From Candidatus Nitrosocosmicus agrestis (GTDB taxonomy: Archaea; Thermoproteota; Nitrososphaeria; Nitrososphaerales; Nitrososphaeraceae), in NCBI RefSeq assembly GCF_008389435.1, contig NZ_VUYS01000018.1, positions 1-64,000 of the forward strand: a stretch of DNA of 64,000 nt. Direction: 5' to 3'. Under the pieces are notes generated by a model that saw only the letters and a list, made by a program, of their open reading frames with translations, searched no databases and was not told where the DNA came from. Position numbers and translations under genes: made by a program. Position 1 is the stretch's first letter, and each line of letters starts with the position of its first letter. Of this stretch, positions 44,944-63,715 are shown one piece after another.

Positions 44944-45151
44944 CTATACCCTTTTAAGTATTTTAATTACTTGGTTTATTAAATCTTATTTTGATTAATT
45001 GATTGATAAAAAAAATTATTATTGGATGATTTTGCCAAAGGTAAAACTAACCGATCATTAATGAACCACCAGAAGGGGTCATTTTTGGCTAAATGCAAAA
45101 TAGGAATATTTTTTCACAAACCAGCTAGAAAAATACTTATAAAAAAATAAT

Positions 45152-45742
45152 TTAGTTAAGATCTACAGCAGGACTATTTATCACAACATTTGACTTAAGT
45201 ACCGTAAGCTCTCCTTTAGCTTGCGCATCCAAAACTTCCTGAGCTGATTTGAGTACCTTTGGCTGAGATCCATTATTCCAGGTTACGTAATTTATTTCAA
45301 ATAATGGACTATAGCCTTCATCATCTGCTGAAGCAGTTGCAATAGGGAGCTGGTGATCAAATGTTCCGTTACCCTCAACTCCGTTTGTAAAGACATAGCC
45401 TTGTTGACGTGAAACTTCTGGAGTATCTGCTAGAGTTGGTGCATAATTAACATTGAATTTTGTAGTATTGGTGACGGATGAAACTATCATTTGTTCTGAG
45501 GCGTCAGTACTAATGAAATAAGATACATTTCCATTAACATATCCTTTTTCTACCGGGATAGTAAGTGAGAACGGAAAATTATTTTTGTCAATCTGTGGAT
45601 CAGTATTATTTGTTATCTGGTTTTGAGTAATATTATTATTATTCTGAGCAAAGCTAGCATGAGAGAAGCTCATAGTAATAATCACTGACATTACAATCAA
45701 ACTGACTGAAACAATCTTAGTATCAAGTTTTATCATCATCAA
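45152..45742 (-). CDS. Exported protein of unknown function
   Basis: A 196-aa protein with a clear signal peptide (hydrophobic residues 10-29, cleavage near SFAQN) and an Asn/Thr-rich linker, followed by a beta-rich domain (FSLTIPVEKGYVNGNVSYFISTD and so on). There are no cysteines. Three ATG codons open the frame, so the exact start is uncertain by two residues. No family recognised. Confidence 0.65.
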   Translation of the reverse strand: MMMIKLDTKIVSVSLIVMSVIITMSFSHASFAQNNNNITQNQITNNTDPQIDKNNFPFSLTIPVEKGYVNGNVSYFISTDASEQMIVSSVTNTTKFNVNYAPTLADTPEVSRQQGYVFTNGVEGNGTFDHQLPIATASADDEGYSPLFEINYVTWNNGSQPKVLKSAQEVLDAQAKGELTVLKSNVVINSPAVDLN

Positions 45743-45791
45743 CTAGTGATTTTTCAAATATAAAAGAATTACTTGATCATCTACAATTCAA

Positions 45792-45902
45792 ATGATAGAG
45801 TTCAGTTTTCCATTTGAAGACTTTGAAATCACAACTGAAGGAAACAAAAAATACATCTATTTCAAAATTTTTCAATGTTCTAAATTGTATGCTTTGGCCT
45901 GA
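45792..45902 (+). CDS. Possible 36-aa microprotein
   Basis: ATG-started 36-aa frame (MIEFSFPFEDFEITTEG, then KKYIYFKIFQCSKLYALA). Its only support is a good TATA box, AAATATAAAAG at 45756-45766, centred 31 nt ahead of the ATG. No homology recognised; could be chance. Confidence 0.25.
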   Translation: MIEFSFPFEDFEITTEGNKKYIYFKIFQCSKLYALA

Positions 45903-46191
45903 AAATTAGAAAACATACCTCAAGAAACTTAGCTTATGAAAAGCGTCAGTATTCTGAATATGATTTAGGTTAAGTTTTTCACCTTGCCAACACAGCTTGA
46001 TTATTTGAATTGGTTATTGATTTTTATTTTTGAGTTATTGTCTTTTGTCAGAATTATATAAATAATTAAATATTACAATAACATTTATGTAATGTGGTAA
46101 ACTTGAAATGCTTTCCATTTAAGGAAGATATTACTCAAATGTTTAATTTATACGATTGTCAAATTAAAGTAGGATATATTTTGAAAGCGGC

Positions 46192-46197
46192 GAGGAG
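46192..46197 (+). promoter_or_regulatory. Shine-Dalgarno sequence of the DUF308 gene
   Basis: GAGGAG ending 10 nt before ATG 46208, one of few clear ribosome-binding sites in the window. A competing ATG at 46201 opens only an 18-codon frame, so 46208 is the start. GGATATATTTT just upstream (46172-46182) is a TATA candidate. Confidence 0.6.
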
Positions 46198-46207
46198 AGT
46201 ATGAATC

Positions 46208-46774
46208 ATGGTTTCAGAAAATTCTTCACCTCCAGGAAAATCACCAACTTGGCTTAGAATGGCTCAAATTGGTCTTGGAATTGTCATCCTGATATTATCA
46301 ATAATAGTGCTTGTCAATCCTATACTAGGCTCTGTTTCAATTATCATATTTTTGGCATTCCTATTACTGTTTGCTGGAATAGAAAAGATTATCAGTGGGA
46401 TTATCTTTGCCGGTCGAACCAGATTTATTAGCATTGGATTAGGTATTTTGGTCGTTATTGTAGCCATGATAGCTTTGGCTTATCCTTTGGGTGCCAGTAT
46501 ATTTGTTGTATTATTGTTAGGAGTGGCCTTATTAATTGATGGTGTATCAAGAATCATTCATAGTATAAAAGATCATACTAGTAGTAGATGGTCCAAGTAT
46601 TTTGGTATTGGAGTTGGTATACTGTCAATAATTCTTGCAGCAGCGGTAATTGCATATCCAGGTATTGGACTGGCACTTGCAGGCATTTTAATAGGAATAG
46701 CACTCCTAATAACTAGTATTCAAATCATTTCAGCAGGAGTAACAGGGGAAAATCAAAGAAGACGGTTAATTTGA
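46208..46774 (+). CDS. DUF308 (HdeD-like) membrane protein
   Basis: A 188-aa protein of six transmembrane helices arranged as three internal pairs, each with the family's G-x-x-x-(I/L)-x-x-(G/A) and Y-P-G/L turn: IGLGIVILILSIIVLVNP, ISIGLGILVVIVAMIALAYP and FGIGVGILSIILAAAVIAYPG. HdeD-type proteins are linked to acid resistance in enterobacteria; the role in archaea is unknown. ATG start with a good Shine-Dalgarno sequence. Confidence 0.88.
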   Translation: MVSENSSPPGKSPTWLRMAQIGLGIVILILSIIVLVNPILGSVSIIIFLAFLLLFAGIEKIISGIIFAGRTRFISIGLGILVVIVAMIALAYPLGASIFVVLLLGVALLIDGVSRIIHSIKDHTSSRWSKYFGIGVGILSIILAAAVIAYPGIGLALAGILIGIALLITSIQIISAGVTGENQRRRLI

Positions 46775-47104
46775 AATTTAACCATTTTCTTGATTAATTT
46801 ATTTTGGATGGATTTTTTAACTTAATTTTCGATTTTTTTGGCAATCTTGCAAAGTTGCAGCCGACTCTCAGAGTTGTGATCAGTCTAATTAGTTACTTAC
46901 ATTGCAAGTAGGAAACTACTTTGCTTTACTTTCAATAATCTTAAATTTAGTTACTAAACTGGTCAACGACGCTTTTTCACCCGTTGGTTGTACTTTGACA
47001 TTTAACTTGAACTCCTCTAAAGAGCCGTATTATAATTCATAGTAACATCTTAATGCAAGCCTATCTGGAAAAAGTCTTTATAATTCATAGGGATGTTACA
47101 AATT
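46775..47104. other. Intergenic, nothing recognised
   Basis: About 330 AT-rich bases before the Lrp-type gene; no gene or RNA seen. Confidence 0.4.
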
Positions 47105-47338
47105 ATGCCTACCGCCTATCTTCTAATATGCTGTGATTTGGATTTTGAGAATGAAGTAGTTACTCAAATGAAAAAATTTCGTGATGTTATTGAAGTGAAT
47201 AGAGTATTTGGCGTGTATGATATAATAGCAACTATAACTTCTGATAACACGGACAAACTTAGAGAATTGATTACTCTCAATATAAATAAAATACCAAAAA
47301 TCCGATCCGTATTAACCATTGTGAAAAATGAAACCTGA
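47105..47338 (+). CDS. Stand-alone Lrp/AsnC ligand-binding (RAM) domain
   Basis: A 77-aa protein with a beta-alpha-beta-beta-alpha-beta ferredoxin-like fold: TAYLLICCDLDFENEVVTQM, then GVYDIIATITSDNTDKLREL and IRSVLTIVKNE. The N-terminal helix-turn-helix of full Lrp regulators is missing, as in the SraA-like stand-alone forms common in archaea, which oligomerise and bind amino acids or join full-length partners. ATG at 47105 matches family starts; ATG 47093 is four codons upstream. Confidence 0.85.
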   Translation: MPTAYLLICCDLDFENEVVTQMKKFRDVIEVNRVFGVYDIIATITSDNTDKLRELITLNINKIPKIRSVLTIVKNET

Positions 47339-48362: not shown

Positions 48363-49068
48363 GGCTCTGTTAACTTAAGCGTTAATCATCTGTGCGTTAT
48401 GATGATCCACAAATGGATTCAACCAGTTTCTTACATGCTTTAGTTTACAACTCTTTTTTCTACAAGGAAAGTAATCATCGAAACTTTCAGTTCTATCCTT
48501 GATATATTGTATCGTTCTTTCAATCCTGCTTTTCTCTATAGGAGAATGAACATGGTGATCGAGTCTGAGAAACTGACAAGCCATCGGGTACCATGTTCTT
48601 TCACCATCAGTAGATACTGGATACATGCTTTCCATAATCTCTTACGACTCCTGACAGAAACCTCTCGGCAACAAACATGTTTCTTTCTTGAGTTATTCCT
48701 TTGGCAAAAAAGTGCTAGAATTTGATGACTTTCTGGCTCAATTGATTGCAATCCAAAGCCATATTAATTCTGGACCAACCTTGATAAGTAATGTTTCATC
48801 AACTATGAATTCATCAATTTTCCTTCTCTTCTTTGAGGATGTGCTTCTGAAATGACCTTTTTGAATCCACTTCCAGATTGCAACATGGCTTCTCTTAACA
48901 TTATGTAAGAATAACAATGCTTTGGCAACACATCTAGTCGACAAACCAAGAAAGTACAAATACAATGCACGGTCGATATCTAATGAAGATGTTCTTTGTT
49001 TCTTTTGATAACCATATGGAAATAGGGACAACATCTTCAAGCTATAAGAATTCCTTAAATGAAGAGCC
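48363..49068 (-). mobile_element. Decayed IS6/IS240-like insertion sequence
   Basis: A 706-bp element. The left end reads GGCTCTGTTAACTTAAG and the right end, read inward, GGCTCTTCATTTAAGG: an imperfect terminal inverted repeat whose GGxxCTGTT style is that of IS6 elements. It is flanked by 8-bp repeats with one mismatch. It encodes one transposase on the minus strand, now broken (next entry). Length and single-gene content fit the family. The mismatched duplication and frameshifts show an old, immobile copy. Confidence 0.8.
48375..49040 (-). pseudogene. Frameshifted IS6/IS240-type DDE transposase
   Basis: Three pieces in different frames make one transposase. The N-terminal part (49040-48741) has a helix-turn-helix region SLDIDRALYLYFLGLSTRCVA and the first catalytic Asp in IDEFIVDET, ending WLWIAIN. 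A 1-nt shift at about 48740 leads to EPESHQILALFCQR. A second shift near 48625 leads to YPVSTDGERTWYP (second Asp) and SRIERTIQYIKDRTESF (catalytic Glu). All three catalytic residues can be placed, but no single frame connects them, so the protein cannot be made intact. Confidence 0.85.
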
Positions 49069-49956: not shown

Positions 49957-49985
49957 AGCGCGGGGAGTGGGATTCGAATCCATTA
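49957..49985 (-). other. Partial tRNA 3' end, possible attachment site
   Basis: On the minus strand the bases read TTCGAAT (T-loop), CCCAC (3' T-stem), TCCCCGC (3' acceptor strand) and G (discriminator), a contiguous 20-nt match to the expected end of a tRNA gene. The 5' T-stem strand is ATGGA instead of GTGGG, pairing at only three of five positions, and no matching 5' acceptor GCGGGGA exists within several hundred bases. It is therefore a fragment and not a functional tRNA. Such fragments are left where an element integrates into a tRNA gene. Confidence 0.5.
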
Positions 49986-50528: not shown

Positions 50529-51368
50529 ATGATTAAACTTGATTATTCTTCAAAGAATCGCGGTTATCATATTAATAGTGCGTATCTAAAAAATAGTAAG
50601 ATGTTTTTTGAATGTATGATGGTTCAGATCATTCCACCCAAGAACGGACGGATAGTTTTTGAATGTGAAAATTACTATTTTTATCATGATGACTTCGTTA
50701 AAATTTATGATGCTAATGGCATAGAATACTTTCCAATGGAAGTTTCCGATGAATTTTCAATAACCGAACTGATTGTCAAGCGGATAGGAGGATTAATGGC
50801 TTCTCGAACAGTCGACTCTGATACCACTAACAGGAGCATTGCTGCTAAGAAATGGGGAATTGATATAGGTGTTTCTGGAAATCGAAAAAAAGAATCAACA
50901 AGAGAATTGCCGCGAGATGTAGAATCGATAATAGAGGAGTCTCTAGCAAATAAAGAACGACTAGCAATTTTATTTAACAATATTGATAAATATGATGTAA
51001 ATTACTTAAATGACTTATCAAAAAAACTATTGATAATCTCAAGGAAACCTGAATGGAAAATAATTATATTATTGGCATTTGGGGAAGACGCTTTTCAAAA
51101 AAATTTTGACAAAATAGGAAATCTCGGTGATAGTGTGTATAATCCAAAAACCGAAACTGTTAAGTTAATTCCTCAACTCTATGCGGGCCTAAACAATGAA
51201 GAGAGAGATCTCTTTGCTACTTATGAGAGTTTTGAATTATTTATTGCTCTGTCCAGGGGGAGTGAAAATGATTTACGCTATTTGTATTCACAGGTAATTA
51301 ATTTAAGACTTATTAAAATTGATGTAGCCGAAATCAATATTTTATCAACACTTATTCAAAATAGGTGA
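50529..51368 (+). CDS. Unrecognised protein, first gene of the accessory cassette (P1)
   Basis: A 279-aa protein of no family I know. Residues 1-85 are beta-rich (FECMMVQIIPPKNGRIVFECENYYFYHDD), residues 85-135 a polar linker with many Ser/Thr/Arg, and residues 135-279 are helical (DVESIIEESLANKERLAIL, WKIIILLAFGEDAFQKNFD, LFATYESFELFIALSRG). No signal peptide, membrane helix or catalytic motif is visible. It precedes P2 by 88 nt on the same strand and sits behind the 19-bp palindrome. ATG start. Confidence 0.75.
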   Translation: MIKLDYSSKNRGYHINSAYLKNSKMFFECMMVQIIPPKNGRIVFECENYYFYHDDFVKIYDANGIEYFPMEVSDEFSITELIVKRIGGLMASRTVDSDTTNRSIAAKKWGIDIGVSGNRKKESTRELPRDVESIIEESLANKERLAILFNNIDKYDVNYLNDLSKKLLIISRKPEWKIIILLAFGEDAFQKNFDKIGNLGDSVYNPKTETVKLIPQLYAGLNNEERDLFATYESFELFIALSRGSENDLRYLYSQVINLRLIKIDVAEINILSTLIQNR

Positions 51369-51456
51369 AACACAAACATGTTTTGCCTATTCTATTCTTG
51401 GTCAGGATTCAAAATACTTATAAGTAAATGACTTAGTGAGAATATTTATTAATTAA

Positions 51457-52896
51457 TTGCCGAATTTTGGATCTGGTAAAAGTTTAGTAACATTGACGAA
51501 TAAAATTACTTCGATTCTGAGTGATTATGAATTAACTTTAAAAGATGATTCTTTTGGCAATTCCGATCGGAAAATCTTGGATGAAATCAAATTTGTATAT
51601 AATATAGACGGAACAGATACGTTGCAGTCCATTAAACGAATTTTTGAATTATTGTCATTGGATAATGCGGTTCAATTGATTGAACTCATTTATTATTCAA
51701 AGAACGGCGTCAGTGTGTCAAATTATAATTATTTAGGAAAAGAAGTTAATTTCGAATCCCTTGTAAAAGAATTAGAGAAAGAAAATATTATAAAAATAGA
51801 AAATAAGTTTTTGGTAGGAGGCAATTTCATAGAAGAAGTTATGGTTTGTATAAATATGTTAAAAAAATTCCTCCCACTGTGGGAAAGTCAAAAAAATCTC
51901 GCTTCCGAGATGGATTTAGAAGTGATAAGATTAGGAAACAAACCGATCTTTAAGGATGAAATATATCAAATTAGGCCATACATGCAGGAAGTTAATATTA
52001 ATCATTTTATCCAATCAATGGTAGACTTTCGCTCTAGGTTTGACGTGCTCAATGTGGCTATTAAGAATATTACTATTAATTATAATGACAAGAGCATTGA
52101 ACTAGACTTTTCAATACATGTGAGTGAGTCCTTGAAAAAAACCCGGAATTCTGTTGAAATTGCTCTTCCTGAAAACTTTATTGTTACAAAATTGAGAGAT
52201 CAGGAATTTAAACTAATCCCTGGCATTATGTTACTAGATAATAGTAAATATAGTATAAATCTGAATAAATTGAATAGTAATGAAAATTATATCATAAGTG
52301 TTAAAGGTAATATTAGTTCTAAGTTAATAACTGATCTGGTAAAGATCAAACTTTATGGGGCGAATGATAATTCTGAAAAATATAATACTTATTGGTTGAA
52401 TGCTATAATTCAGAATATAGATTTATTGGAGAAGTATTGTAAAGTTCTTCAAATTGAAGACATTAACATCGGCGTAGATATTTCGATAGTAAAGTTGATT
52501 TCTAGCGAATTGCCGCCAGAACTAACTGATATTAGTAAAAAAACAATCGAATTTCTAAACGCCGGTTATACAACTGATCGAGATAAATTATTTCATGCTT
52601 GGAGAGATTTACATAAAGCCCATAGGAATTTCAGAATGGATTATGCAAACATCTTAAAAGTCATTAATAGCATATCGGATGCGAGCGAGTTTGCAAGATA
52701 CTTATCTATTAAACCTCCATTTCACGTTGCAGGTGTAAGACGTGTAGATAAATATGCTGGATATATTCCTCAAAAAATTGAAGTTGATATCCTTACCGAT
52801 CTTAGTCTGACTCAACCTGTTGCAAATGGCGAGTTAATTTTCAAAAAAGAAGACTATATTAATCATATTAAAAAACAACTCACTCTATTGAAATGA
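51457..52896 (+). CDS. Unrecognised protein P2, paralogous over its C-terminal 300 residues to P3
   Basis: A 479-aa protein with three parts. Residues 1-130 are helical and resemble a winged-helix-like unit (VNFESLVKELEKENIIKIENKFLVGGN). Residues 180-320 are beta-rich. Residues 330-479 are a conserved helical/strand module containing EDINIGVDISI, AWRDLHKAHRN, SIKPPFHVAGVRR, KYAGYIPQK and LTDLSLTQP. Over about 146 residues of that module I count about 80 identities with P3 at 53298-54224. No catalytic motif recognised. Start is TTG. Confidence 0.75.
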   Translation: MPNFGSGKSLVTLTNKITSILSDYELTLKDDSFGNSDRKILDEIKFVYNIDGTDTLQSIKRIFELLSLDNAVQLIELIYYSKNGVSVSNYNYLGKEVNFESLVKELEKENIIKIENKFLVGGNFIEEVMVCINMLKKFLPLWESQKNLASEMDLEVIRLGNKPIFKDEIYQIRPYMQEVNINHFIQSMVDFRSRFDVLNVAIKNITINYNDKSIELDFSIHVSESLKKTRNSVEIALPENFIVTKLRDQEFKLIPGIMLLDNSKYSINLNKLNSNENYIISVKGNISSKLITDLVKIKLYGANDNSEKYNTYWLNAIIQNIDLLEKYCKVLQIEDINIGVDISIVKLISSELPPELTDISKKTIEFLNAGYTTDRDKLFHAWRDLHKAHRNFRMDYANILKVINSISDASEFARYLSIKPPFHVAGVRRVDKYAGYIPQKIEVDILTDLSLTQPVANGELIFKKEDYINHIKKQLTLLK

Positions 52897-53297
52897 AATA
52901 TCTAAAATTTGATCGAGAAATGCTAATAAAATTACTACATAAGAGTTAAAAAAATGGCATAAGAACCACCAGACTTACTATTAAAAAAGGGAGTAACTTA
53001 TTTTATTTACCCGAATGAGCCTTATACAATATACGAGTGGATAAAAATCGGATTATGAAGGCTAAGAGAATTCATAACCTAACAAAGGTGTGAATACTGC
53101 GACGATTTTCTTCAGAAGGAACGACTATATCAGAATCATTGCCTAGACCTTTTTGTCACTAATTGGTGTTAACGAATTTTATTCTTTCTATCTCAAATAA
53201 TATGATTTGTTATCGAGTGCTATTACATGTATCTCAAAGGTTTGTTGTCTAGAGTTTTGTTCAATAGATTATTTATGGATATATCAAGGGATGAATT
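52897..53297. other. Intergenic between the two convergent halves of the cassette
   Basis: About 400 AT-rich bases between the stops of P2 and P3; nothing recognised. Confidence 0.45.
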
Positions 53298-54224
53298 TTA
53301 TTTCTTTAGTTTTTTCAATCCCAATTCGTTTTCAACGTATTTGCTATAATCCGCCTTCTTGAATAATAATACTCCGTCTGCTTTTGGCTCTGTCAGACTT
53401 AACCTTGTAATCACTTCTACAGACATTTTTTGAGGAATATATCCAGCATATTGATCAATCCTTCTTATCGGTCCTAAGTAAAAAGGAGGCTTAGTAGACA
53501 AATATCGATCAAAATCACGTGCGTCAGAAATCTTGTTGAGCACTCGAATAATATGAGAATAATCAATTTTAGAATTCTTACTAACTTTGTATAGGTCTCT
53601 CCAGGCTGCGTATAACCTATTACGATCATTTCCCTGTCCTGCTTTTACAAATTCAACAGTTTTCATACTTACATCTGACAACTCAGATGGCAATGAGGTT
53701 GCAATGGCTTTCATTATAGATATGTCTACCCCTATGTTAACATCTTCAATTTCTAGGCTGCTCCAAAGTGACTGAAAGGAATGGACGTTTTTTATAACGG
53801 CCCTAAGCCAATATTTGTCATATTTTTCAGAAGAATCACGATTGGCAGATCTTTGGATCCATACTAAATCATCCAAAAATGATGGATCTATTTTCCCTTC
53901 CAAAGTGATATAGTATTTTTCATCGCCCGGTAAATTTTTTGTATTTAATTTCCATCTGTCTTTATCTAGATACCATGCTCCAGTGATAATAGAAAAACTC
54001 TGACTATGCATTCTCTTAATTACAAAGTCTTTGTTGTATGGAATTACCACTGAGTGAAATTGGTTTTTTATTGATGACGGGACGTGCACAAGAAATTGCA
54101 TCTCTGCTGTTCCTTTTTCGTAGTTGATGGAAAAATTTTTGTATTCTCCCTTGTAGGGTTTGAAATATTCAAACCCTTTCTTTATCCAGTCAGCAACCCT
54201 GGCGACGTCGATACTAATTACCAT
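53298..54224 (-). CDS. Unrecognised protein P3, paralogue of the P2 C-terminal region
   Basis: A 308-aa protein lacking the N-terminal 170 residues of P2. Residues 1-150 match the beta-rich middle of P2 loosely (AEMQFLVHVPSSIKNQ against IELDFSIHVSESLKKT); residues 160-305 match closely, sharing GVDISI, AWRDLYK, KPPF, DQYAGYIPQK and TRLSLTEPKADG. The shared block suggests a common binding partner. It starts 3 nt after the stop of P4, so P4-P3 form an operon on the minus strand. ATG start. Confidence 0.75.
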   Translation of the reverse strand: MVISIDVARVADWIKKGFEYFKPYKGEYKNFSINYEKGTAEMQFLVHVPSSIKNQFHSVVIPYNKDFVIKRMHSQSFSIITGAWYLDKDRWKLNTKNLPGDEKYYITLEGKIDPSFLDDLVWIQRSANRDSSEKYDKYWLRAVIKNVHSFQSLWSSLEIEDVNIGVDISIMKAIATSLPSELSDVSMKTVEFVKAGQGNDRNRLYAAWRDLYKVSKNSKIDYSHIIRVLNKISDARDFDRYLSTKPPFYLGPIRRIDQYAGYIPQKMSVEVITRLSLTEPKADGVLLFKKADYSKYVENELGLKKLKK

Positions 54225-54227
54225 TCT

Positions 54228-55277
54228 CTATTTTACCGGTTGCTCCAAGGTCAAATCTTCTACATCTAAAAGTGAGTAGTCCTCTATGTTATTGAAGGCT
54301 AAATCGGTGATAAACTCTAGATTTTTAGTTCTTCTCTTATCCGTTACTCTTATTTCTCTTTTCAATGGACCATATTCATTTCCTATGCTATCAACGTAAG
54401 ATAATTTCAAATGCAATTTTTCGGATTCAGATATCATCTTTCCACGAAACCTAACAGGCATACTTAAGCGAATGTTTTCGCTCGGATTGACAATTTTCAT
54501 TTCCGCAATTATAAAGGCGCCGATGGTGTTGGAGGAATTTTTCAAGAGCATGAAATATTTATTAATTTTCTTTTGATCCTTAAAGAATTCCTTTATCTCG
54601 TTGATATGCTCCTCTGAAAAATCGGCATATCCAATATATTCTTCGAAGGAAGTAGAATTTTCTAATTTATTGAGAAGTAACTCAATTTCTATCTTGTCCA
54701 GTTCTTGTTCTTGATCCTCCTCATTAGGATTTTCTGATAATGTATCCAACAATAATTTACGTATCACTTCACGGACAGTAGAATGGTTCTCTGAAATTGA
54801 TTTGTCGCCTAATGTGGCTTCTATTTTTAATGTAATTTCTCCCAAACCGAACAATTTTAGGCATAACGATAACGGTTTCATGGGATCCTGGATCTCGATT
54901 TCGTCTGGACATTGATCTATTTCAAGGAGTGGTCTGAATGTTCTTGTTTCAACATCCTTCCTGTCAATCTCAATGCCGTTAAGATAAGCAACAATTGTCA
55001 CATTGTTTAATTCATAAATGGAAAAAGGAATGCGTTTAGTTTTTAGTATCATACCAAAATATGTGTAATCAATGAATTCAGAGTCAAAAATTTCGGTAAT
55101 TTCAGCAACATTCTTCGAGATGTAATTATACGAAGACACGTTCAAAAAGCCTTTAAATTCCAACCCTTCAGAAAGTGTAATTACTATTTTATCATATCTT
55201 CTTTTTTCAATTTCTACCGTGATCGGTATATCCTCCTTTGGAAGAGTCCAGCGAACGGTATCAGCCTTCACAATCAC
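54228..55277 (-). CDS. Unrecognised beta-sandwich-rich protein P4
   Basis: A 349-aa protein. Residues 1-165 and 245-335 are dominated by alternating strands (IPITVEIEKRRYDKIVITLSEGL, NVTIVAYLNGIEIDRKDVETR, LSMPVRFRGKMISESEKLHLKLSYVD), like two beta-sandwich or arrestin-type domains. They flank a helical, very acidic middle (SENPNEEDQEQELDKIEIE). No catalytic motif, signal peptide or membrane helix. GTG start. Transcribed away from P5 and followed immediately by P3. No family recognised. Confidence 0.72.
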   Translation of the reverse strand: MIVKADTVRWTLPKEDIPITVEIEKRRYDKIVITLSEGLEFKGFLNVSSYNYISKNVAEITEIFDSEFIDYTYFGMILKTKRIPFSIYELNNVTIVAYLNGIEIDRKDVETRTFRPLLEIDQCPDEIEIQDPMKPLSLCLKLFGLGEITLKIEATLGDKSISENHSTVREVIRKLLLDTLSENPNEEDQEQELDKIEIELLLNKLENSTSFEEYIGYADFSEEHINEIKEFFKDQKKINKYFMLLKNSSNTIGAFIIAEMKIVNPSENIRLSMPVRFRGKMISESEKLHLKLSYVDSIGNEYGPLKREIRVTDKRRTKNLEFITDLAFNNIEDYSLLDVEDLTLEQPVK

Positions 55278-55533
55278 TATTAATTGAAAAAGTCATATAA
55301 ACGTTGGAAATTTTATGGTTTTAGTGTAATTTTAAATTTTAATATGTATATTTTATAATCGTCATGAAAAAAACGAGAGTAATCGTTCAAATAATACACA
55401 CGACTTTGACCTACGATAGACTCCAACAATTCTATTATGGTCATTAAATTGGTATAATTATTTAAACAAAATTAGGTTGATATAATCTCATAAGAGACAA
55501 ATACAACACACGTTATAGTTAGCCAACTAGCAT

Positions 55534-58500
55534 TTGAAAAATTTTAATGAAGACTTAATACGAAAACTCCAGATGGAAAACCCTACATTGATAAACTATT
55601 ACAAAGGCGCGATACATGTTTTTAATGACAAGTCAAATCCGGATAGATTTTCTCAATCCGCCAATTCAATAAGGGAATTAATCGAAAAGTTGTTTAGGGA
55701 TGGAAAATACGAAAAACAAACGAGCAACAGCGATAGGGAGAACAATGCATTTAAAATTAAAATTCAAAAATATGTTGATCCTTTAGGTAATATTCCAAAA
55801 AAATATGTATCTATATATTCATCATTTCATGATTCTACATATCAATATTTTCTTAAAGTAACACATCATGGTATAATTCCAGATGAAAAAGAATACTTAG
55901 AAAAATTAGAGATTTTTGAAGAACAACTAATGGATTTGCTGTTGGATTATTCTGAATGTATGGAATATACAGATAAAATGATTAGGAAAGACAACCCAGA
56001 ACTAATTGACATCGAAGAACTAATTAGGAAATTAAAATTTGATACTTTGCGTAGGAATTTTTTCTACAGTATTTCGCCTAAGTGGATAAAACTTTTAAAA
56101 GAAAATGATTTTTTTAAGAATCCTCCGTCACAAACCGAAAGCCATACCTGTCCAATTTGGTATGAATCAAAGTTTTTGGTCAACAGTTCAAAATTTTCTA
56201 ATATAGATTTCGAAATTCTCTATTTAATTATTCAACAGTGCACTATGAGCATAGATGTTAACAAGAGAAACCATAATGTGACACTTGATTTTTTGCAAGT
56301 TGCAGCAAATGCCCCTGTGTCATATACTAATAAGATTATAACTCTGTTATTAGAAAGGGGATGGCTCGATTTGCCTATTCACCAGTATTACTTCGACCTT
56401 AGAGTTTATACAGAAATTACTGAAAAACTACTAAAAAATTCGATATACAACGATAAGTGGAATAGGCATATCCTTGAAATCAAGGATTTAGATAATAAGA
56501 AAGAAATTGAACAACAAACAAATGACGGCAAGACAAATCCTGAACTCAAAAAAACTATTAATAATTTTATCAATTATCCACTGAGGAACATAAACTACAA
56601 TGAATTTGTGAGATGGATTCAGTTAATTTATCGTGACCTTAATCAATTTTTGAAATCATTAGATTTCATTTATGCATTATTTGATACTTTTAAAAAATTG
56701 GTAAATACGTATGAAATAATTCTTAAATATCAAAGTAAAGGATCCGATTTCTTTATTGAATTAGATCCTATCAAACCTATCCCATTGTTCAACCTAAACC
56801 GAATCAGGGTGGATAACGAGTTGAAAGAAAATATTGAGGTAGACATTTTACTCTATGACTTGCTTAAGAGTTCAATTTTTGAATTACTTCAACGAGATAA
56901 CCCAATTGAATTATTACAATTTATACGCAATAGAGTTTCAAATCCGAGACATTCGTCGATAATGTATAAAAGATTTTTGCTTTCGATTTACTCTTTCACT
57001 CCATCATATTTTCAGGATGAAATTAAGAACTGCATTATTGAATATCTGGGAAATGAAGACATTTATCATGAATATTCAATAATAGTTCGAAAAACTTTAC
57101 CAACCTTTGACATTGAATATAGAACTAAATATATCGAACAGGTGTCAAATAAAGTCAAAACACTTGATCTAGATTTAGAGAATGATCTTTCAGATGTTCA
57201 TACTTTTCTTAGGTTCTATGAACCTATAGAGAACTTTCTACCTACTGGAGTAAAAGCAACCTATGATAATTTAATCTCAAGATATTCTGCATACAGGCCT
57301 GAGGGATACATGGGAAAAGTGTCCATCTGGCATGATCAAACTATTATTGAGGATATTTCATATTCAGATCTTAAGCAGATTCTTAAACAAGAGAAATATG
57401 AAATAAATCAATATTATTTAATAGAGTATAATCTAGAAAAACATGCACTCGAATTTGTAAAGAATGTTAATGATATTGATACTATTAATGGGTTATTTTA
57501 CTCTACTATACTTAAGTCTATTTTAGAAACTAACAATAATGGCAAGATCCCTACAGAAGAGATATTACCACTGGTAGATCACATAGTTACAATTGATAAG
57601 AATAGAAACAATGAATTGTTGCATCAAATTTTACATTTTGTCCATAAATATATGAACGATAACATCAGTTTTGAAATGAACAATTATGCAATTTACTCTA
57701 TAATTAAATATCTATTGAAAATATCGTCTCATATAGAGATTGATATTAATCAGCCAATTGGCAAAAAGTTGTTTGAAAGTGTTTTGGATTCACATCAGTT
57801 TCATGCACAGGCGGCTCTAATTAAATATAACTTTTGGAGGAATAAAAATACAAGTGCTGTTGGAATTTTGGATGAGTTATCTGATCTACGAGAAATAAAA
57901 CAGCATGGAATTAATTCGGTATTTATATTGGCTGCATACGCGGGTTATTTTACTACTATTAGTTCTCTTGATGAATCGTTCGTATCAAAAAACATGGATG
58001 TCATACTTCCTACTTTAGATCATGGTAGTAAACTTCTATTTTATGTAGCCTGGGTATTTTTCTTGAATGAAAATTCCGTTAAAATTATAATAGAAAATAA
58101 CTTTCAAAAATTGCTATGCTTCTTTAAAAACCTAAAATGTTTAAGATCAGAAAAGTCAGACCCTATTAATTTATTGACGATTAATGCTATTCTATATCCA
58201 TTTCTTAACGATAAAGACGAGAACGATTCTTTACTTGATGCTTTCATTGATTCTTCCAGCATTGAGACTCGAACTAATTTCTTGATTGAACTGGTAAAAT
58301 TTGTGAAGAACAATAAACAAAAATCTCTTAGTGAATCATTCATTAACAGATTCAAAAAGGTTTTGTCCAAGAATAAATTTAAGACCAATCCCAAATTAAT
58401 AGATGTATTTTTGAATAGTCCATTTGAAAAAAATTATTCTCTCGAACTGATATATCAATATTTAACCCGACCTGAATTCGATGTAAAATCCGATTATTTC

Positions 58501-58764
58501 AATCTTAGTAATGTAGTGTTAGAATTATCCAAATTCCCCGATGTTAACGAAGAAAAGGTTCTTTCTTTGATAAATTTAATCCTTAAAAAATCGACGGAGG
58601 TCGGATCCTATCTTAACTATGAAATGGTATATGAAAGTCTAAATAGAATTAAAGAAAGTATTGACAATAAAGAACAGTTTAATAAGATTATCGAATATAT
58701 ACTTAAAACGTCTTTTGAAACAAAATTTAACCAACTAAAAATAAATACAAAATTGATTAAATGA
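55534..58764 (+). CDS. Unrecognised 1076-aa helical protein P5
   Basis: The largest protein of the cassette, almost wholly alpha-helical. Residues 10-150 contain YYKGAIHVFNDKSNPDRFSQ, SIRELIEKLF and a later FHDSTYQYFLKVTHHG, a pattern I recall from the N-terminus of large bacterial hypothetical proteins (unverified). Residues 210-300 look like a winged helix (LDFLQVAANAPVSYTNKIITLLLERGWLDL). The rest is HEAT-like helical repeats with no catalytic motif seen. Divergent from P4 across 256 nt. Start is TTG. It may be a scaffold or sensor for the cassette. Confidence 0.78.
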   Translation: MKNFNEDLIRKLQMENPTLINYYKGAIHVFNDKSNPDRFSQSANSIRELIEKLFRDGKYEKQTSNSDRENNAFKIKIQKYVDPLGNIPKKYVSIYSSFHDSTYQYFLKVTHHGIIPDEKEYLEKLEIFEEQLMDLLLDYSECMEYTDKMIRKDNPELIDIEELIRKLKFDTLRRNFFYSISPKWIKLLKENDFFKNPPSQTESHTCPIWYESKFLVNSSKFSNIDFEILYLIIQQCTMSIDVNKRNHNVTLDFLQVAANAPVSYTNKIITLLLERGWLDLPIHQYYFDLRVYTEITEKLLKNSIYNDKWNRHILEIKDLDNKKEIEQQTNDGKTNPELKKTINNFINYPLRNINYNEFVRWIQLIYRDLNQFLKSLDFIYALFDTFKKLVNTYEIILKYQSKGSDFFIELDPIKPIPLFNLNRIRVDNELKENIEVDILLYDLLKSSIFELLQRDNPIELLQFIRNRVSNPRHSSIMYKRFLLSIYSFTPSYFQDEIKNCIIEYLGNEDIYHEYSIIVRKTLPTFDIEYRTKYIEQVSNKVKTLDLDLENDLSDVHTFLRFYEPIENFLPTGVKATYDNLISRYSAYRPEGYMGKVSIWHDQTIIEDISYSDLKQILKQEKYEINQYYLIEYNLEKHALEFVKNVNDIDTINGLFYSTILKSILETNNNGKIPTEEILPLVDHIVTIDKNRNNELLHQILHFVHKYMNDNISFEMNNYAIYSIIKYLLKISSHIEIDINQPIGKKLFESVLDSHQFHAQAALIKYNFWRNKNTSAVGILDELSDLREIKQHGINSVFILAAYAGYFTTISSLDESFVSKNMDVILPTLDHGSKLLFYVAWVFFLNENSVKIIIENNFQKLLCFFKNLKCLRSEKSDPINLLTINAILYPFLNDKDENDSLLDAFIDSSSIETRTNFLIELVKFVKNNKQKSLSESFINRFKKVLSKNKFKTNPKLIDVFLNSPFEKNYSLELIYQYLTRPEFDVKSDYFNLSNVVLELSKFPDVNEEKVLSLINLILKKSTEVGSYLNYEMVYESLNRIKESIDNKEQFNKIIEYILKTSFETKFNQLKINTKLIK

Positions 58765-59807: not shown

Positions 59808-60446
59808 ATGACTATATCGTCAAAAATTCTTTTGAACATAAGGATACATTCTCAAAAGGAATTCATTTTAAGGATAATAAAAAGTTGTGTATATTACGAT
59901 GTTGGTGAAACGAGGTCTTTAGAAGTTATTGAGAGGCTGACAAAGAAGAGATTATCAGTAAAAACTTTCTACAACTACAAGAAAATATTGTATAAGAATT
60001 CTAAAATCTATGAAACGAAATTTAACCACGGAGAATGGGTTTACAGAGATCTACTTATCAAGTCACATTTGCTATTCTTATCAGAGGATGATATGGCAAA
60101 ACAGTTCCAAGTTGATAAATTGATATGCAATGAATTTCCAGATATACCGAAAAATTATAGAGAAAGAATGAAAAACTTTGGTAAGAATGAAATCGATAAT
60201 ATTTTGAACAAATTTCATGAATTGAAAAATAAAATAAACAAGGAGAAAGAGAAGGAGTCGGAATTAAGATTAATTCCTATAAAAGCCACTATAAGAAAAG
60301 AAGAAATAAAATGCGGAAAGAAAGGATGTCATCAATGTCCTCATGGTCCTTACTACTACGCCTATTGGAAGGAAGAAGATGCTAAAACTTTGAAGAAAGT
60401 TTATCTTGGTTCTGAATTGCCAGAACAGTTTATTCATTCAATTTAG
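59808..60446 (+). CDS. DUF6788-type protein of mobile elements
   Basis: A 212-aa protein. The last 50 residues hold RKEEIKCGKKGCHQCPHGPYYYAYW, with the CGKxGCxxCPHGPYYY core I associate with DUF6788, a small domain common in archaeal plasmids and integrated elements; its Cys/His set may bind metal. The N-terminal 130 residues are basic and helical with SVKTFYNYKKILYKN resembling a helix-turn-helix recognition helix. A DNA-binding role within the element is plausible. ATG start. Confidence 0.72.
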   Translation: MTISSKILLNIRIHSQKEFILRIIKSCVYYDVGETRSLEVIERLTKKRLSVKTFYNYKKILYKNSKIYETKFNHGEWVYRDLLIKSHLLFLSEDDMAKQFQVDKLICNEFPDIPKNYRERMKNFGKNEIDNILNKFHELKNKINKEKEKESELRLIPIKATIRKEEIKCGKKGCHQCPHGPYYYAYWKEEDAKTLKKVYLGSELPEQFIHSI

Positions 60447-60910: not shown

Positions 60911-61885
60911 TCATTTATCCTCTAATATTTTCTTCATTTCGTCATATTCTTCCCTGTTTATTTCACCTTTAGCAAATCTCATTTTAAGTATGGCAATAGG
61001 ATCATTTGTCTGAACGCTCCGATGATTGTTAGGCGATTTGGTATCGCTGAAAGATTGCCTATTTTTTATTATTACTTGATATAATTGTGCAGCCCATTCT
61101 CTGATCGCTTTCCCGTTTAATGATGATACTCCAAATACAGGCCTATGAATTATTCCATTCTCGTCCTTATACGGAATTACCAGCCTATGAATCTTGCCGG
61201 TAGCACTTAGTAACCCTCCCACAAAAGTGAAATCTTCATTACCAACGCCTATGGCCGAAAAATTTGTATTTCGAGTTTCCTCATGAACATTCCACTGTTC
61301 TATAATTACAGAGCCCAAAGGAATGAATATTTCCCATAAATTCGAAGGATTTTTGTCACTCTTTAGAAATACCGCGTATCTGCTTGTAAGGTAAAATGCG
61401 CCTCTTTCATGATCACCTAGTTTTCCACCGGCTAAATGAAACTTGTGTCCTCCATAATATTCACCATCCTTTGCCTGTAAGACTATATCACCATAGATAT
61501 GATTAAAGCAAGACATACACAAATGTTGACCCGAAAATTTGAACGTAGTTTCATTTCTATAACAATTGGTGCAAATTATCGTTCCCTTTAATAAGGCATT
61601 GAATTTTAGCCTGGAGTTAACATCACTATCAACTATTTTTAATATTCTTAAATGTTCTAATAAATAGAAAGGCGTTACGCCCCAAACTAAGATGTGCATT
61701 GATTGGGCTTCATCTATTAATCCCGTATCGTTATTTTTATGATGAAACTCTTGAGAAGTCATGTTGTTGATACTTTTGGCGAAGGAAATTGATAACGCTA
61801 TAAACGTTGTAGTCGAAAGGAGGTGCTTTCTTGTAATTGGTATGGTCTTAATTTCATTGATATTTTTGAGAGGAATTCTGAACAA
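60911..61885 (-). CDS. PH-like and zinc-ribbon protein with SHOCT tail
   Basis: A 324-aa frame from a TTG. N-terminal PLKNINEIKTIPITRKHLLS looks like the inside of a PH-like domain. Residues 105-135 carry CTNC and CMSC, a zinc ribbon. Residues 140-260 are beta-rich (GAFYLTSRYAVFLKS, a second PH-like unit). The last 28 residues, PIAILKMRFAKGEINREEYDEMKK, are a SHOCT domain. The same frame is open for 35 more codons upstream, to the TAA of the preceding gene, and those codons read as normal protein (KKVRKLFISLEDDSIEIH), so the true start or relation to the upstream gene is unclear. Confidence 0.7.
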   Translation of the reverse strand: MFRIPLKNINEIKTIPITRKHLLSTTTFIALSISFAKSINNMTSQEFHHKNNDTGLIDEAQSMHILVWGVTPFYLLEHLRILKIVDSDVNSRLKFNALLKGTIICTNCYRNETTFKFSGQHLCMSCFNHIYGDIVLQAKDGEYYGGHKFHLAGGKLGDHERGAFYLTSRYAVFLKSDKNPSNLWEIFIPLGSVIIEQWNVHEETRNTNFSAIGVGNEDFTFVGGLLSATGKIHRLVIPYKDENGIIHRPVFGVSSLNGKAIREWAAQLYQVIIKNRQSFSDTKSPNNHRSVQTNDPIAILKMRFAKGEINREEYDEMKKILEDK

Positions 61886-61990: not shown

Positions 61991-62440
61991 TTATATTAAT
62001 TTTATATCATAGTCTTTTTTCTTTAACAGTTCATCATTCAATTTAGACCATATGGTAAGTTCAGTTGGTCTTCTAACAATCCAGCCGTCAGCGGCTATTT
62101 CACTTTCTACTTTATCTATAATATACCCGGTAACGAACGGGATTCTTTCGCCAATCGCCAGGACAAGTGGTTCCAAAAATCTTTTATCTGGCCTAAAGGC
62201 AATTTGCAGTGTATCGTATATTTCGACAGTGGTAGTATTTACGTCACTCTTTGAAAAGAATATGTAATAGTTAATGCTAAATGCAGATCTGCTTAGCATC
62301 CGAGATTTTCCTAATATTCTATGCATTTGTTCGTCTGCTATCTTTACTGGCCCATTCAATTTATCACAAGTCTCCTTAATATGGCTGAAAGCAGATTCTA
62401 TCGGTTCAGAAGTTTGAAATACAGCCCGGCTATAAAGCAC
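61991..62440 (-). CDS. 149-aa protein in frame with the downstream SHOCT protein
   Basis: A GTG-started cytoplasmic protein: strand FQTSEPIESAFSHIKETCDKL, then SAFSINYYIFFSKSDVNTTTVEIYDTLQI and KRFLEPLVLAIGERIPFVTGYIIDKVE, an alpha/beta layout without recognised motif. It ends in a TAA, after which the same frame continues into the SHOCT protein with no further stop. Either an operon with an unusual second start or a once-single protein of about 510 residues. Confidence 0.6.
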   Translation of the reverse strand: MLYSRAVFQTSEPIESAFSHIKETCDKLNGPVKIADEQMHRILGKSRMLSRSAFSINYYIFFSKSDVNTTTVEIYDTLQIAFRPDKRFLEPLVLAIGERIPFVTGYIIDKVESEIAADGWIVRRPTELTIWSKLNDELLKKKDYDIKLI

Positions 62441-62578: not shown

Positions 62579-63715
62579 TTATGCTATTTGTTTGATTTGT
62601 AGCATTTTGTATAAATCAGGTAATTCTTCCCTAACTTTGCGGATAGATAAAGGATAGAAAGAACTCACTTTTCTTAAAACATTTCTCAGATATGCATGAT
62701 AGTTAAAATGTATTTGTAATTGTTTTTTACGATCACAAATCTTTAACCAATTTTCAGCAATCTGAAAAGCGTCGTCTTCTGCATATTGTTTAACATTCAC
62801 CAAATAGGGACATATTATTTTCCATAAACAAATTTTTCTATTATCTTCTATTGGGACCTGAAGAAGATTCTCTATCCAGTCAATACTTTTATTGGACGAA
62901 TGACTTAAACTATCATATGTTATAGACTTTTTTTGAGCGTTTCTTCGTTTCTTTTCTTTTATAATCAAACTTCTCTTGTCTACCAGGTAATCAAAAAAAT
63001 CTTCTGCTACCCACTTGACATTTGGTAATTTTCCATCCCATTTTTGGATGATTTCAACCGCCTTACCATTTTTAGAATTTATAGTTCCTGGAACTCTTAA
63101 CAAGCAATTATTAATTGAGGGATGATGTTGCGGATCGGCCTTTTCATCCGAAAAGAATTTTTCAGCAAACCTCATAAACTCAGTGGTTAGATCTTTTTGG
63201 TTTAAGTATGGGAGAAAATTGTGAAATATTTGCTCTTCCTCAAAGACTATTCCATTCAATGGTTGGTATATATGATATCCATTGCCAGTCCACAAGACTG
63301 TGGGATTGGCCATTCCTTTAAATTTCTGAGATAATTTGTTTAATATTTTAGTTAATCTTTTATCTAAATACTCACGACTATCAAAATATTCCATATCGAG
63401 ATCAATCATAATTAACGATGTAGAAGTCATATTTTTTACATCAAAATCAATTGAATGTTTTACCCTATAAGGAAACGCATTTATTCTGCAATCGACGAAT
63501 TTATAAATTCGGAAGTATGCAAAGATCCGATCACTACAATTTCTTTCATTTACATCGAAATCCATCACTTTCCATCTTTTCTTATCGCCAAGAAGGATGG
63601 TTCTAGGAAATAACTCATGTTGGCTTTTGAAATGTGATAGCATAAAGTCAATGTTATCCTTCATTTTTTGAAGATAAAAATAATGTTCCTTAGTATGCTC
63701 TGCATCATCCCCCAT
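62579..63715 (-). CDS. AEP/PrimPol-type DNA primase
   Basis: A 378-aa replication protein of the archaeo-eukaryotic primase superfamily. Motif I is MID105LD107MEY (metal-binding DxD), motif II is WTGNGYH148IYQP (the G-x-H phosphate motif), and motif III lies in the segment with D194 before LLRVPGTINSK. The C-terminal 110 residues are helical (DAFQIAENWLKICD, YHAYLRNVLRKVSSF), like PriCT/PriX-type extensions. It would prime or initiate replication of a plasmid or integrated element. ATG start. Confidence 0.82.
   Translation of the reverse strand: MGDDAEHTKEHYFYLQKMKDNIDFMLSHFKSQHELFPRTILLGDKKRWKVMDFDVNERNCSDRIFAYFRIYKFVDCRINAFPYRVKHSIDFDVKNMTSTSLIMIDLDMEYFDSREYLDKRLTKILNKLSQKFKGMANPTVLWTGNGYHIYQPLNGIVFEEEQIFHNFLPYLNQKDLTTEFMRFAEKFFSDEKADPQHHPSINNCLLRVPGTINSKNGKAVEIIQKWDGKLPNVKWVAEDFFDYLVDKRSLIIKEKKRRNAQKKSITYDSLSHSSNKSIDWIENLLQVPIEDNRKICLWKIICPYLVNVKQYAEDDAFQIAENWLKICDRKKQLQIHFNYHAYLRNVLRKVSSFYPLSIRKVREELPDLYKMLQIKQIA

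What the first reader, a model, noticed from the sequence alone, without database searches (positions are those of the whole stretch)
50529..58764. Five-gene cassette of unrecognised proteins with an inverted paralogous pair
P1 and P2 run rightward, P4 and P3 run leftward to meet them, and the 1076-aa P5 runs away from P4. P2 and P3 share a module of about 146 residues (about 80 identities by hand count) containing GVDISI, AWRD, KPPF and YAGYIPQK, which I cannot assign to a family. None of the five shows a signal peptide, membrane helix or classical enzyme motif. P5 is a giant helical scaffold-like protein with a winged-helix-like segment. The cassette sits in a region with element-type genes. 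The arrangement (large scaffold, duplicated module with and without an extra N-terminal domain, beta-sandwich partner) resembles defence or conflict cassettes in architecture only.
Basis: partly seen in the sequence, partly recalled or inferred. Interest (0 to 1): 0.75.

Follow-up and report, generated by a model that had tools for sequence, protein, structure and literature searches.

The report
Mobile-element cargo with conserved gene pair
Five unfamiliar genes in an ammonia-oxidising archaeon turn out to be the cargo of an 18.8-kb DNA element inserted in a tRNA gene; two of them form a previously unnamed gene pair that recurs beside DNA-cutting defence genes in other archaea, so they may be part of an unrecognised archaeal immune or conflict module.

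Summary
The five ORFs and the P2/P3 duplication are real (81 identities in 146 residues; 126/277 overall). They are not one five-gene system. They are cargo of an 18.8-kb integrated element: a 26-bp copy of the 3' end of tRNA-Ser(GCU) at 49957-49982 is repeated at the intact tRNA 18.8 kb to the right, beside a tyrosine recombinase. A relative of the same genus has the uninterrupted site. The cargo breaks into units. (1) P4-P3 is a fixed, ordered, abutting pair, found in six Nitrososphaeria genomes, in diverged form in a seventh, and on a Haloplanus plasmid. Four of the five other Nitrosopumilaceae loci with both genes lie beside restriction or other defence-type genes. (2) P2 is P3 duplicated onto an orphan N-terminal domain, behind orphan P1. 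(3) P5 is an independent giant protein; one homologue sits between cas1 and polB of a casposon-like locus. No member is a known family in Pfam, NCBIfam, PADLOC or PHROGs. Best reading: MGE-borne conflict (defence-type) modules, with P4-P3 as a non-enzymatic heteromer, probably a sensor or adaptor. Location and pairing are shown; function is inferred. The 'cassette' fails as a unit, but the conflict intuition is supported for P4-P3.

The parts
49957..49982 (.). att repeat at the left end of the element: AGCGCGGGGAGTGGGATTCGAATCCA, copy of the 3' end of tRNA-Ser(GCU); partner copy at contig position 68742-68767 (L059:4742-4767), beyond the window
   Evidence: 22-bp exact core found only at 49957 and 68742; one mismatch over 26 bp; matches the single uninterrupted tRNA-Ser of G093 (L055:5747-5831)
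50529..51368 (+). P1, 279 aa, orphan protein
   Evidence: no convincing homologue in 250 genomes or plasmids; not a diverged P4 (hhalign prob 0.2%)
51457..52896 (+). P2, 479 aa: orphan N-terminal domain (about residues 1-200) fused to a full P3-like module (residues 203-479)
   Evidence: N-terminal domain not found in 40 relatives
53298..54224 (-). P3, 308 aa: N-terminal helix, beta domain (27-125), second beta part (136-169 and 242-288) interrupted by a helical insert (171-239)
   Evidence: AlphaFold2 model, mean pLDDT 76; homologues
54228..55277 (-). P4, 349 aa, beta-rich protein with a central helical insert; upstream partner of P3 (3 nt between the P4 stop codon and the P3 start)
   Evidence: model mean pLDDT only 53
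55534..58764 (+). P5, 1076 aa giant protein with a conserved N-terminal motif (Y-x-GA ... NPDR-x-SQSA-x-S-x-RE); weak match of residues 16-54 to pP_pnuc_1
59808..60446 (+). 212-aa element gene of unknown function (DUF6788 match not significant)
60911..61885 (-). 324-aa protein ending in a SHOCT domain (element backbone; relatives in G209 and G126)
61991..62440 (-). 149-aa element backbone gene (relative beside the SHOCT gene in G209)
62579..63715 (-). PriX-type primase, 378 aa (element replication)
   Evidence: NCBIfam PriX above cut-off, Pfam PriX E 2.8e-13; relatives in 37 of 250 genomes, up to 7 matches per genome

Best explanation
P1-P5 are the cargo end of an 18.8-kb integrated element (a 'cryptic integrated element') of a Nitrososphaeria archaeon, inserted by a tyrosine recombinase into the 3' end of tRNA-Ser(GCU). 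The cargo consists of separable modules. The conserved core is P4-P3: two beta-rich proteins without a recognisable enzymatic motif, made from abutting genes in fixed order. I infer that they form one complex that works as the sensing or adaptor half of an inter-element/antiviral conflict module and is combined in different genomes with different nucleases. In this element P3 has been duplicated onto a new N-terminal domain (P2) with a new partner (P1), which would give the module a second input or output. P5 is a separate large protein of the kind that moves between mobile elements, and probably acts on its own. Shown: the element boundaries, the modularity, the pairing and order, the defence-gene neighbourhoods, and the absence from close relatives. 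Inferred: complex formation, the sensing role and the antiviral function.
For: Element: in G093 of the same genus the flanking genes are syntenic and an intact tRNA-Ser with no insert lies between them; the tRNA 3' end matches both 49957-49982 and 68742-68767. The integrase ORF begins inside the tRNA end (PHROG integrase E 2e-22). The element also has a PriX primase and an AAA/HTH helicase-like protein. Pairing: every genome with a full-length P4 hit has P3 directly downstream (own, G179, G103, G132, G091, G011); the order also holds on a Haloplanus plasmid (P3 E 3e-25, P4 hhalign E 1.8e-17) and in the diverged pair of G348 (P4 E 4.4e-8). Patchiness: 7 credible genomes of 300 and none of the other genomes of its genus searched. 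Defence neighbours: type III Mod/Res (PADLOC E 5e-191 and 5e-244) about 0.4 kb downstream in G179; MvaI/BcnI R-M 0.24 kb away in G091; Mrr, coupling-protein-like ATPase and DISARM-like helicase/PLD genes in G103; HNH-HIT and PDC-S11 (E 5e-88) directly upstream on the same strand in G011. P5: casposon-like location in G164 between cas1 (E 1.8e-50) and a DNA_pol_B_2 polymerase; a 4.1-kb block of P5 homologue plus a membrane-type protein is shared at 86% DNA identity with an unrelated site in G075.
Against: No direct evidence of antiviral activity. Five other Nitrosopumilaceae loci are a small sample; G132 shows no defence gene at hand and G185 is cut by the contig end. In the window itself no known nuclease accompanies the genes. 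Mobile elements and R-M genes share genomic islands for many reasons, so co-location alone does not prove function. My rough chance estimate for an N6/N4 methylase within 5 kb in 2 of 5 loci, from the counts, is about 0.01, and it was made after seeing the data.
Confidence: 0.5

Rival explanations
1. P4-P3 is a component of the mobile elements' own biology (plasmid maintenance, copy control, conjugation or a virion/structural pair) that also persists in decayed elements; neighbouring R-M genes are merely fellow cargo.
For: The pair lies on a tRNA-integrated element here, on a 221-kb haloarchaeal plasmid, near a tyrosine recombinase in G091, and the G185 copy lies about 1 kb from a tRNA-Arg. 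P2 and the P4 model give faint hits to adhesin/Ig-like beta folds.
Against: The PriX-bearing relatives (37 of 250 genomes) mostly lack it. No match in IMG/VR viral contigs or PHROGs. In G179 it stands in line with a type III R-M operon on the same strand.
Confidence: 0.22
2. P4-P3 is a counter-defence or regulatory accessory (for example protecting the element from host R-M or modulating methylation), not an effector system.
For: Repeated adjacency to R-M genes of different types fits a partner that modifies R-M action as well as one that uses it; the proteins have no enzymatic motif.
Against: The neighbours are different unrelated nucleases, so a specific anti-restriction action would have to be general; in the window no R-M genes are nearby.
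Confidence: 0.15
3. The five genes form one co-operating defence system.
For: Contiguity in this element; P2 and P3 share a module; all five are at the cargo end.
Against: No other locus has more than P4-P3 together; P5 homologues stand apart from P3/P4 in G164, G075 and G260, and G206 had no P3/P4 hit reported; three gene groups in two orientations.
Confidence: 0.08
4. Ordinary cellular accessory genes (chaperone, trafficking or sorting-like beta proteins) picked up by the element.
For: Beta-rich folds; the P3 model gives Foldseek hits to M1 aminopeptidases and OST1 (E about 1e-5).
Against: TM-scores are 0.17-0.22 with rmsd above 8 A, so the match is at most local; the distribution is far too patchy for a housekeeping role (7 of 300).
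Confidence: 0.05

Closest known systems
Thaumarchaeal cryptic integrated elements (Krupovic et al. 2019, PMC6563490)
   Same: Median 17 kb, tyrosine integrase, 3' end of a tRNA gene as target, short att repeats, MCM/primase-type replication genes, most genes without annotation
   Different: Replication module here is a PriX-type primase with an AAA/HTH protein ('PriX' does not occur in that paper); the cargo is the P1-P5 set
Family 1 casposons (Cas1 + protein-primed PolB, often in the ef-2 gene)
   Same: A P5 homologue (L026:8580-11873) sits between cas1 and polB at such a locus in G164, next to an EF-2-like gene
   Different: The window element has no cas1 or polB and uses a tyrosine recombinase; terminal inverted repeats were not identified in G164
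pPIWI-associated nuclease pP_pnuc_1 (PF18165) / PADLOC Aga_Nuclease
   Same: Residues 16-54 of P5 align with positions 6-43 of the model (E 4.6e-5; PADLOC E 1e-3), within a well conserved stretch of the P5 family
   Different: Score 23.5, below the cut-off 26.3; only 39 of 133 positions; no piwi gene recognised nearby; the other four P5 homologues do not match
DISARM / BREX / type I-IV R-M systems
   Same: P4-P3 is found beside genes of these kinds in four genomes
   Different: P1-P5 match no component of any of them

Membership tests
Thaumarchaeal cryptic integrated element (CIE) | Integrase gene in the element | tested here: met
   505-aa tyrosine recombinase at contig 67251-68768: PHROG integrase E 2e-22, Pfam Phage_integrase E 1.4e-4 below cut-off
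Thaumarchaeal cryptic integrated element (CIE) | Direct att repeats, one being the end of an intact target gene, with an empty site in a relative | tested here: met
   26-bp repeats at 49957 and 68742, tRNA-Ser(GCU), empty site in G093
Thaumarchaeal cryptic integrated element (CIE) | No virion, casposase or conjugation genes | tested here: met
   Pfam on the listed element proteins shows none; PHROGs only integrase among those scanned. ORFs under 60 aa not scanned
Casposon | cas1-type casposase and PolB | tested here: not met
   No Cas1 or PolB among element genes; the P5 homologue's locus in G164 has both
pP_pnuc_1 (PF18165) nuclease | Score above the gathering cut-off over the domain | tested here: not met
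   23.5 bits against 26.3, 39 of 133 positions; 1 of 5 family members
Any known anti-phage system in PADLOC-DB | Match to a system's core protein | tested here: not met
   Only P5, E 1e-3 to Aga_Nuclease over 32 residues
Antiviral defence system (functional class) | Protects cells from virus or plasmid | not testable with these tools
   Needs a challenge experiment
Two-gene module P4-P3 (this report) | P4 directly upstream of P3, same strand, abutting or overlapping | tested here: met
   own, G179, G103, G132, G091, G011, G348 (P3 by position), Haloplanus plasmid

The most novel reading that the evidence does not exclude
P4-P3 is the portable sensor/adaptor heteromer of an undescribed archaeal immune system that couples to unrelated nucleases (type III R-M, MvaI-type R-M, HNH-HIT/PDC-S11, Mrr/DISARM-like), spread across Nitrososphaeria and Halobacteria, with P1-P2 as a duplicated version; and the P5 family is a second, independent conflict module shared by tRNA-integrated elements and casposons.
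Probability: 0.25. Interest if true: 0.8.

Novelty: new variant of a known kind. Interest (0 to 1): 0.5.

Why it matters
Ammonia-oxidising archaea are abundant, yet I know of little experimental work on their immunity and mobile-element conflicts. A two-gene pair that keeps its order from Nitrososphaeria to a haloarchaeal plasmid, turns up beside several unrelated nuclease systems, and matches no family in four libraries is a concrete, testable candidate. The haloarchaeal copy makes it reachable with Haloferax genetics. The P5 result adds that one cargo block can occur both at a casposon-like locus and at an unrelated site.

Tried and rejected
Five genes as one system: rejected because homologues occur apart. 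P1 as a diverged P4: hhalign probability 0.2%. P3 and P4 as mutual homologues: 0.2%. P3 as an M1-aminopeptidase/OST1-like fold: Foldseek E 8e-6 but TM about 0.2 and rmsd 9-16 A, kept only as 'beta-rich'; P4 model too poor to use. P3 in the viral structure library: nothing convincing. PDB sequence searches with the three family profiles: nothing. Viral-contig scans for P3, the P3 alignment, the Haloplanus P3, P5, the helicase and the primase gave no usable locus. P5 in phages and plasmids: none. The G284 hit of P3 (E 0.005, two stops) treated as chance. The two copies on the Haloplanus plasmid are one recent large duplication (identical protein accessions), so they are not counted as two cases. 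Haloplanus upstream gene P0001 recurs with a divergent regulator gene in four haloarchaeal plasmids, but no P4/P3 gene was recognised in three of them, so it is not counted as part of the module. IS remnants at 48375-49040 lie outside the left att site.
Full report
OBSERVATION. The five ORFs are present at the stated coordinates and strands. The shared module is larger than described: 277 aligned residues without a gap, 126 identical (45%), E 2e-93. Changes fall mainly at third codon positions (113/73/166), dN is 0.44 and dS saturated, so both copies have been kept as proteins. P2 and P3 are more alike (44-45%) than P3 is to relatives elsewhere (18-35%), which points to a duplication in this lineage. 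P2 carries about 200 extra N-terminal residues that were not found in 40 related genomes. None of the five has a transmembrane-like stretch, and none passes a curated family cut-off; PADLOC and PHROGs add nothing convincing.

THE CASSETTE IS CARGO OF AN INTEGRATED ELEMENT. The window is contig 17 of a 3.2-Mb genome. In G093, of the same genus, the genes left of the cassette (window 42766-47338) and right of it (contig 68967-82782) are neighbours in the same order, separated by under 1 kb. Between them G093 has an intact tRNA-Ser(GCU). Its 3' end matches two places in our contig: the complete tRNA-Ser at contig 68743-68827 and a lone 26-bp copy at 49957-49982 (the 22-bp exact core is found at these two places only). 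This is the signature of site-specific integration into a tRNA gene. The element is 18.8 kb, with P1 starting about 0.55 kb inside the left end. At the right end lies a 505-aa tyrosine recombinase whose reading frame begins within the tRNA end (GSNPTPRA; PHROG integrase E 2e-22). Further element genes are a PriX primase, a 626-aa AAA/HTH helicase-like protein, a 258-aa protein, a SHOCT-domain protein and two small genes. Size, target and gene content fit the cryptic integrated elements of Thaumarchaeota (PMC6563490). PriX relatives occur in 37 of 250 genomes, up to 7 matches per genome, but the loci examined lack P1-P5, so P1-P5 is element-specific cargo.

P4-P3 IS THE CONSERVED UNIT. P3 was found in 7 credible genomes of 300 of the class and P4, by profile, in 7 of 400. 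In every genome where both can be seen they are adjacent, on one strand, P4 first, abutting or overlapping by a few bases: own, G179, G103, G132, G091, G011. G185's P3 lies at a contig end. G348 holds a diverged P4 (hhalign 95%, E 4.4e-8) followed by a 331-aa protein in the P3 position; its sequence similarity to P3 is not significant on its own, so that case rests on position and a matching register. A plasmid of the haloarchaeon Haloplanus sp. GX21 encodes P3 (94% coverage, 24.9% identity, E 3e-25) preceded by P4 (hhalign 98.9%, E 1.8e-17), overlapping by 4 bases. The pair therefore spans Nitrososphaeria and Halobacteria.

NEIGHBOURS OF P4-P3. G179: type III methylase and restriction subunit in line downstream (PADLOC E 5e-191, 5e-244). 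G091: MvaI/BcnI endonuclease and methylase, convergent, 0.24 kb away, with a tyrosine recombinase upstream. G103: a coupling-protein/HerA-like ATPase (weak mads_8), an Mrr endonuclease, and SNF2-type helicase pieces with a PLD nuclease resembling DISARM components. G011: HNH-HIT and a PDC-S11 (DUF4268) gene on the same strand directly upstream. G132: none recognised; a DUF6293 (CARF-like) gene about 3.3 kb away, and such a gene also adjoins the Haloplanus operon. From the number of N6/N4 methylase matches per genome (2-6, and 24 in G132), I estimate by hand about 0.01 for two of five loci having one within 5 kb by chance. This is post hoc, ignores the other defence genes, and should be taken as an indication only.

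P5 IS SEPARATE. P5 homologues (20-32% identity in the matched segments) occur in G164, G075, G260 and G206; in the three whose surroundings were read, P3/P4 are not near. In G164 the homologue lies between a cas1 gene (E 1.8e-50, beginning at the end of an EF-2-like ORF) and a DNA_pol_B_2 polymerase: the anatomy of a family 1 casposon, for which ef-2 is the commonest target; terminal inverted repeats were not identified. The 4.1-kb block of P5 homologue plus a 246-aa convergent membrane-type protein appears at 86% DNA identity in G075 with no matching flanks, so it moves as a unit. G260 has three clear and one marginal P5 relative on one 21-kb contig, with a DUF3800 gene. The weak pP_pnuc_1 match falls on a well conserved stretch of the family but fails the cut-off and is not shared by the other members.

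STRUCTURE. P3 is predicted (5 sequences, mean pLDDT 76) as beta domain, helical insert, beta domain. Foldseek's top hits, M1 aminopeptidases and OST1, have E about 1e-5 but TM-scores near 0.2, so I claim only a beta-rich, non-catalytic-looking fold. P4's model is too uncertain. PDB sequence profiles found nothing.

MECHANISM. Best supported (0.5): P4 and P3 form a heteromer that works as a sensor or adaptor in conflicts between mobile elements, viruses and hosts, and is paired with different nucleases in different genomes; P1-P2 is a derived second copy with a new input/output domain; P5 is an independent conflict protein. Complex formation and antiviral action are inference from fixed gene order, neighbours and mobility. 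Rivals: element maintenance or structure (0.22), counter-restriction or regulation (0.15), one five-gene system (0.08), cellular accessory (0.05).

NOVELTY. The element is a new member of a known kind. The P4-P3 pair and the P5 family are not named in any library searched; co-location with defence genes on mobile elements is a known way such modules behave, hence 'new variant of a known kind'.

Noticed in passing
L026:6757-15048 (G164) and L027:4621-8765 (G075): A casposon-like locus with cas1 and polB carries a P5 homologue plus a 246-aa membrane-type protein; the same 4.1-kb block is found at 86% DNA identity in another genome with no casposon genes beside it.
   Followed up: partly
L028 and L029 (G260 contig 106, 21 kb): Three clear and one marginal giant P5-like genes in opposite orientations on one contig, with a DUF3800 gene: a local expansion.
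   Followed up: partly
window 62579-63715; PriX-type primase genes are multicopy (up to 7 matches per genome) in this genus, suggesting a large, poorly described group of PriX-bearing integrated elements.
   Followed up: partly
L069:11450-15891, L070:5904-8217, L071:5917-8241, L072:5871-8232: In four haloarchaeal plasmids a 256-aa protein (P0001 family) and a small gene follow a divergent gene, annotated DUF6293 in three and MarR-type regulator in the fourth; only in Haloplanus are P4-P3 recognised downstream.
   Followed up: partly
window 47093-47338 and contig 68967-69215: Two Lrp/AsnC-like single-domain genes flank the element; in G093 they are close neighbours with the tRNA-Ser between them.
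   Followed up: yes
window 48375-49040: Transposase remnant just outside the left att site of the element, related to copies in G070.
   Followed up: no
window 3877-5133: 418-aa secreted-looking protein with a tandem Asp/Ser/Asn-rich repeat tail.
   Followed up: no
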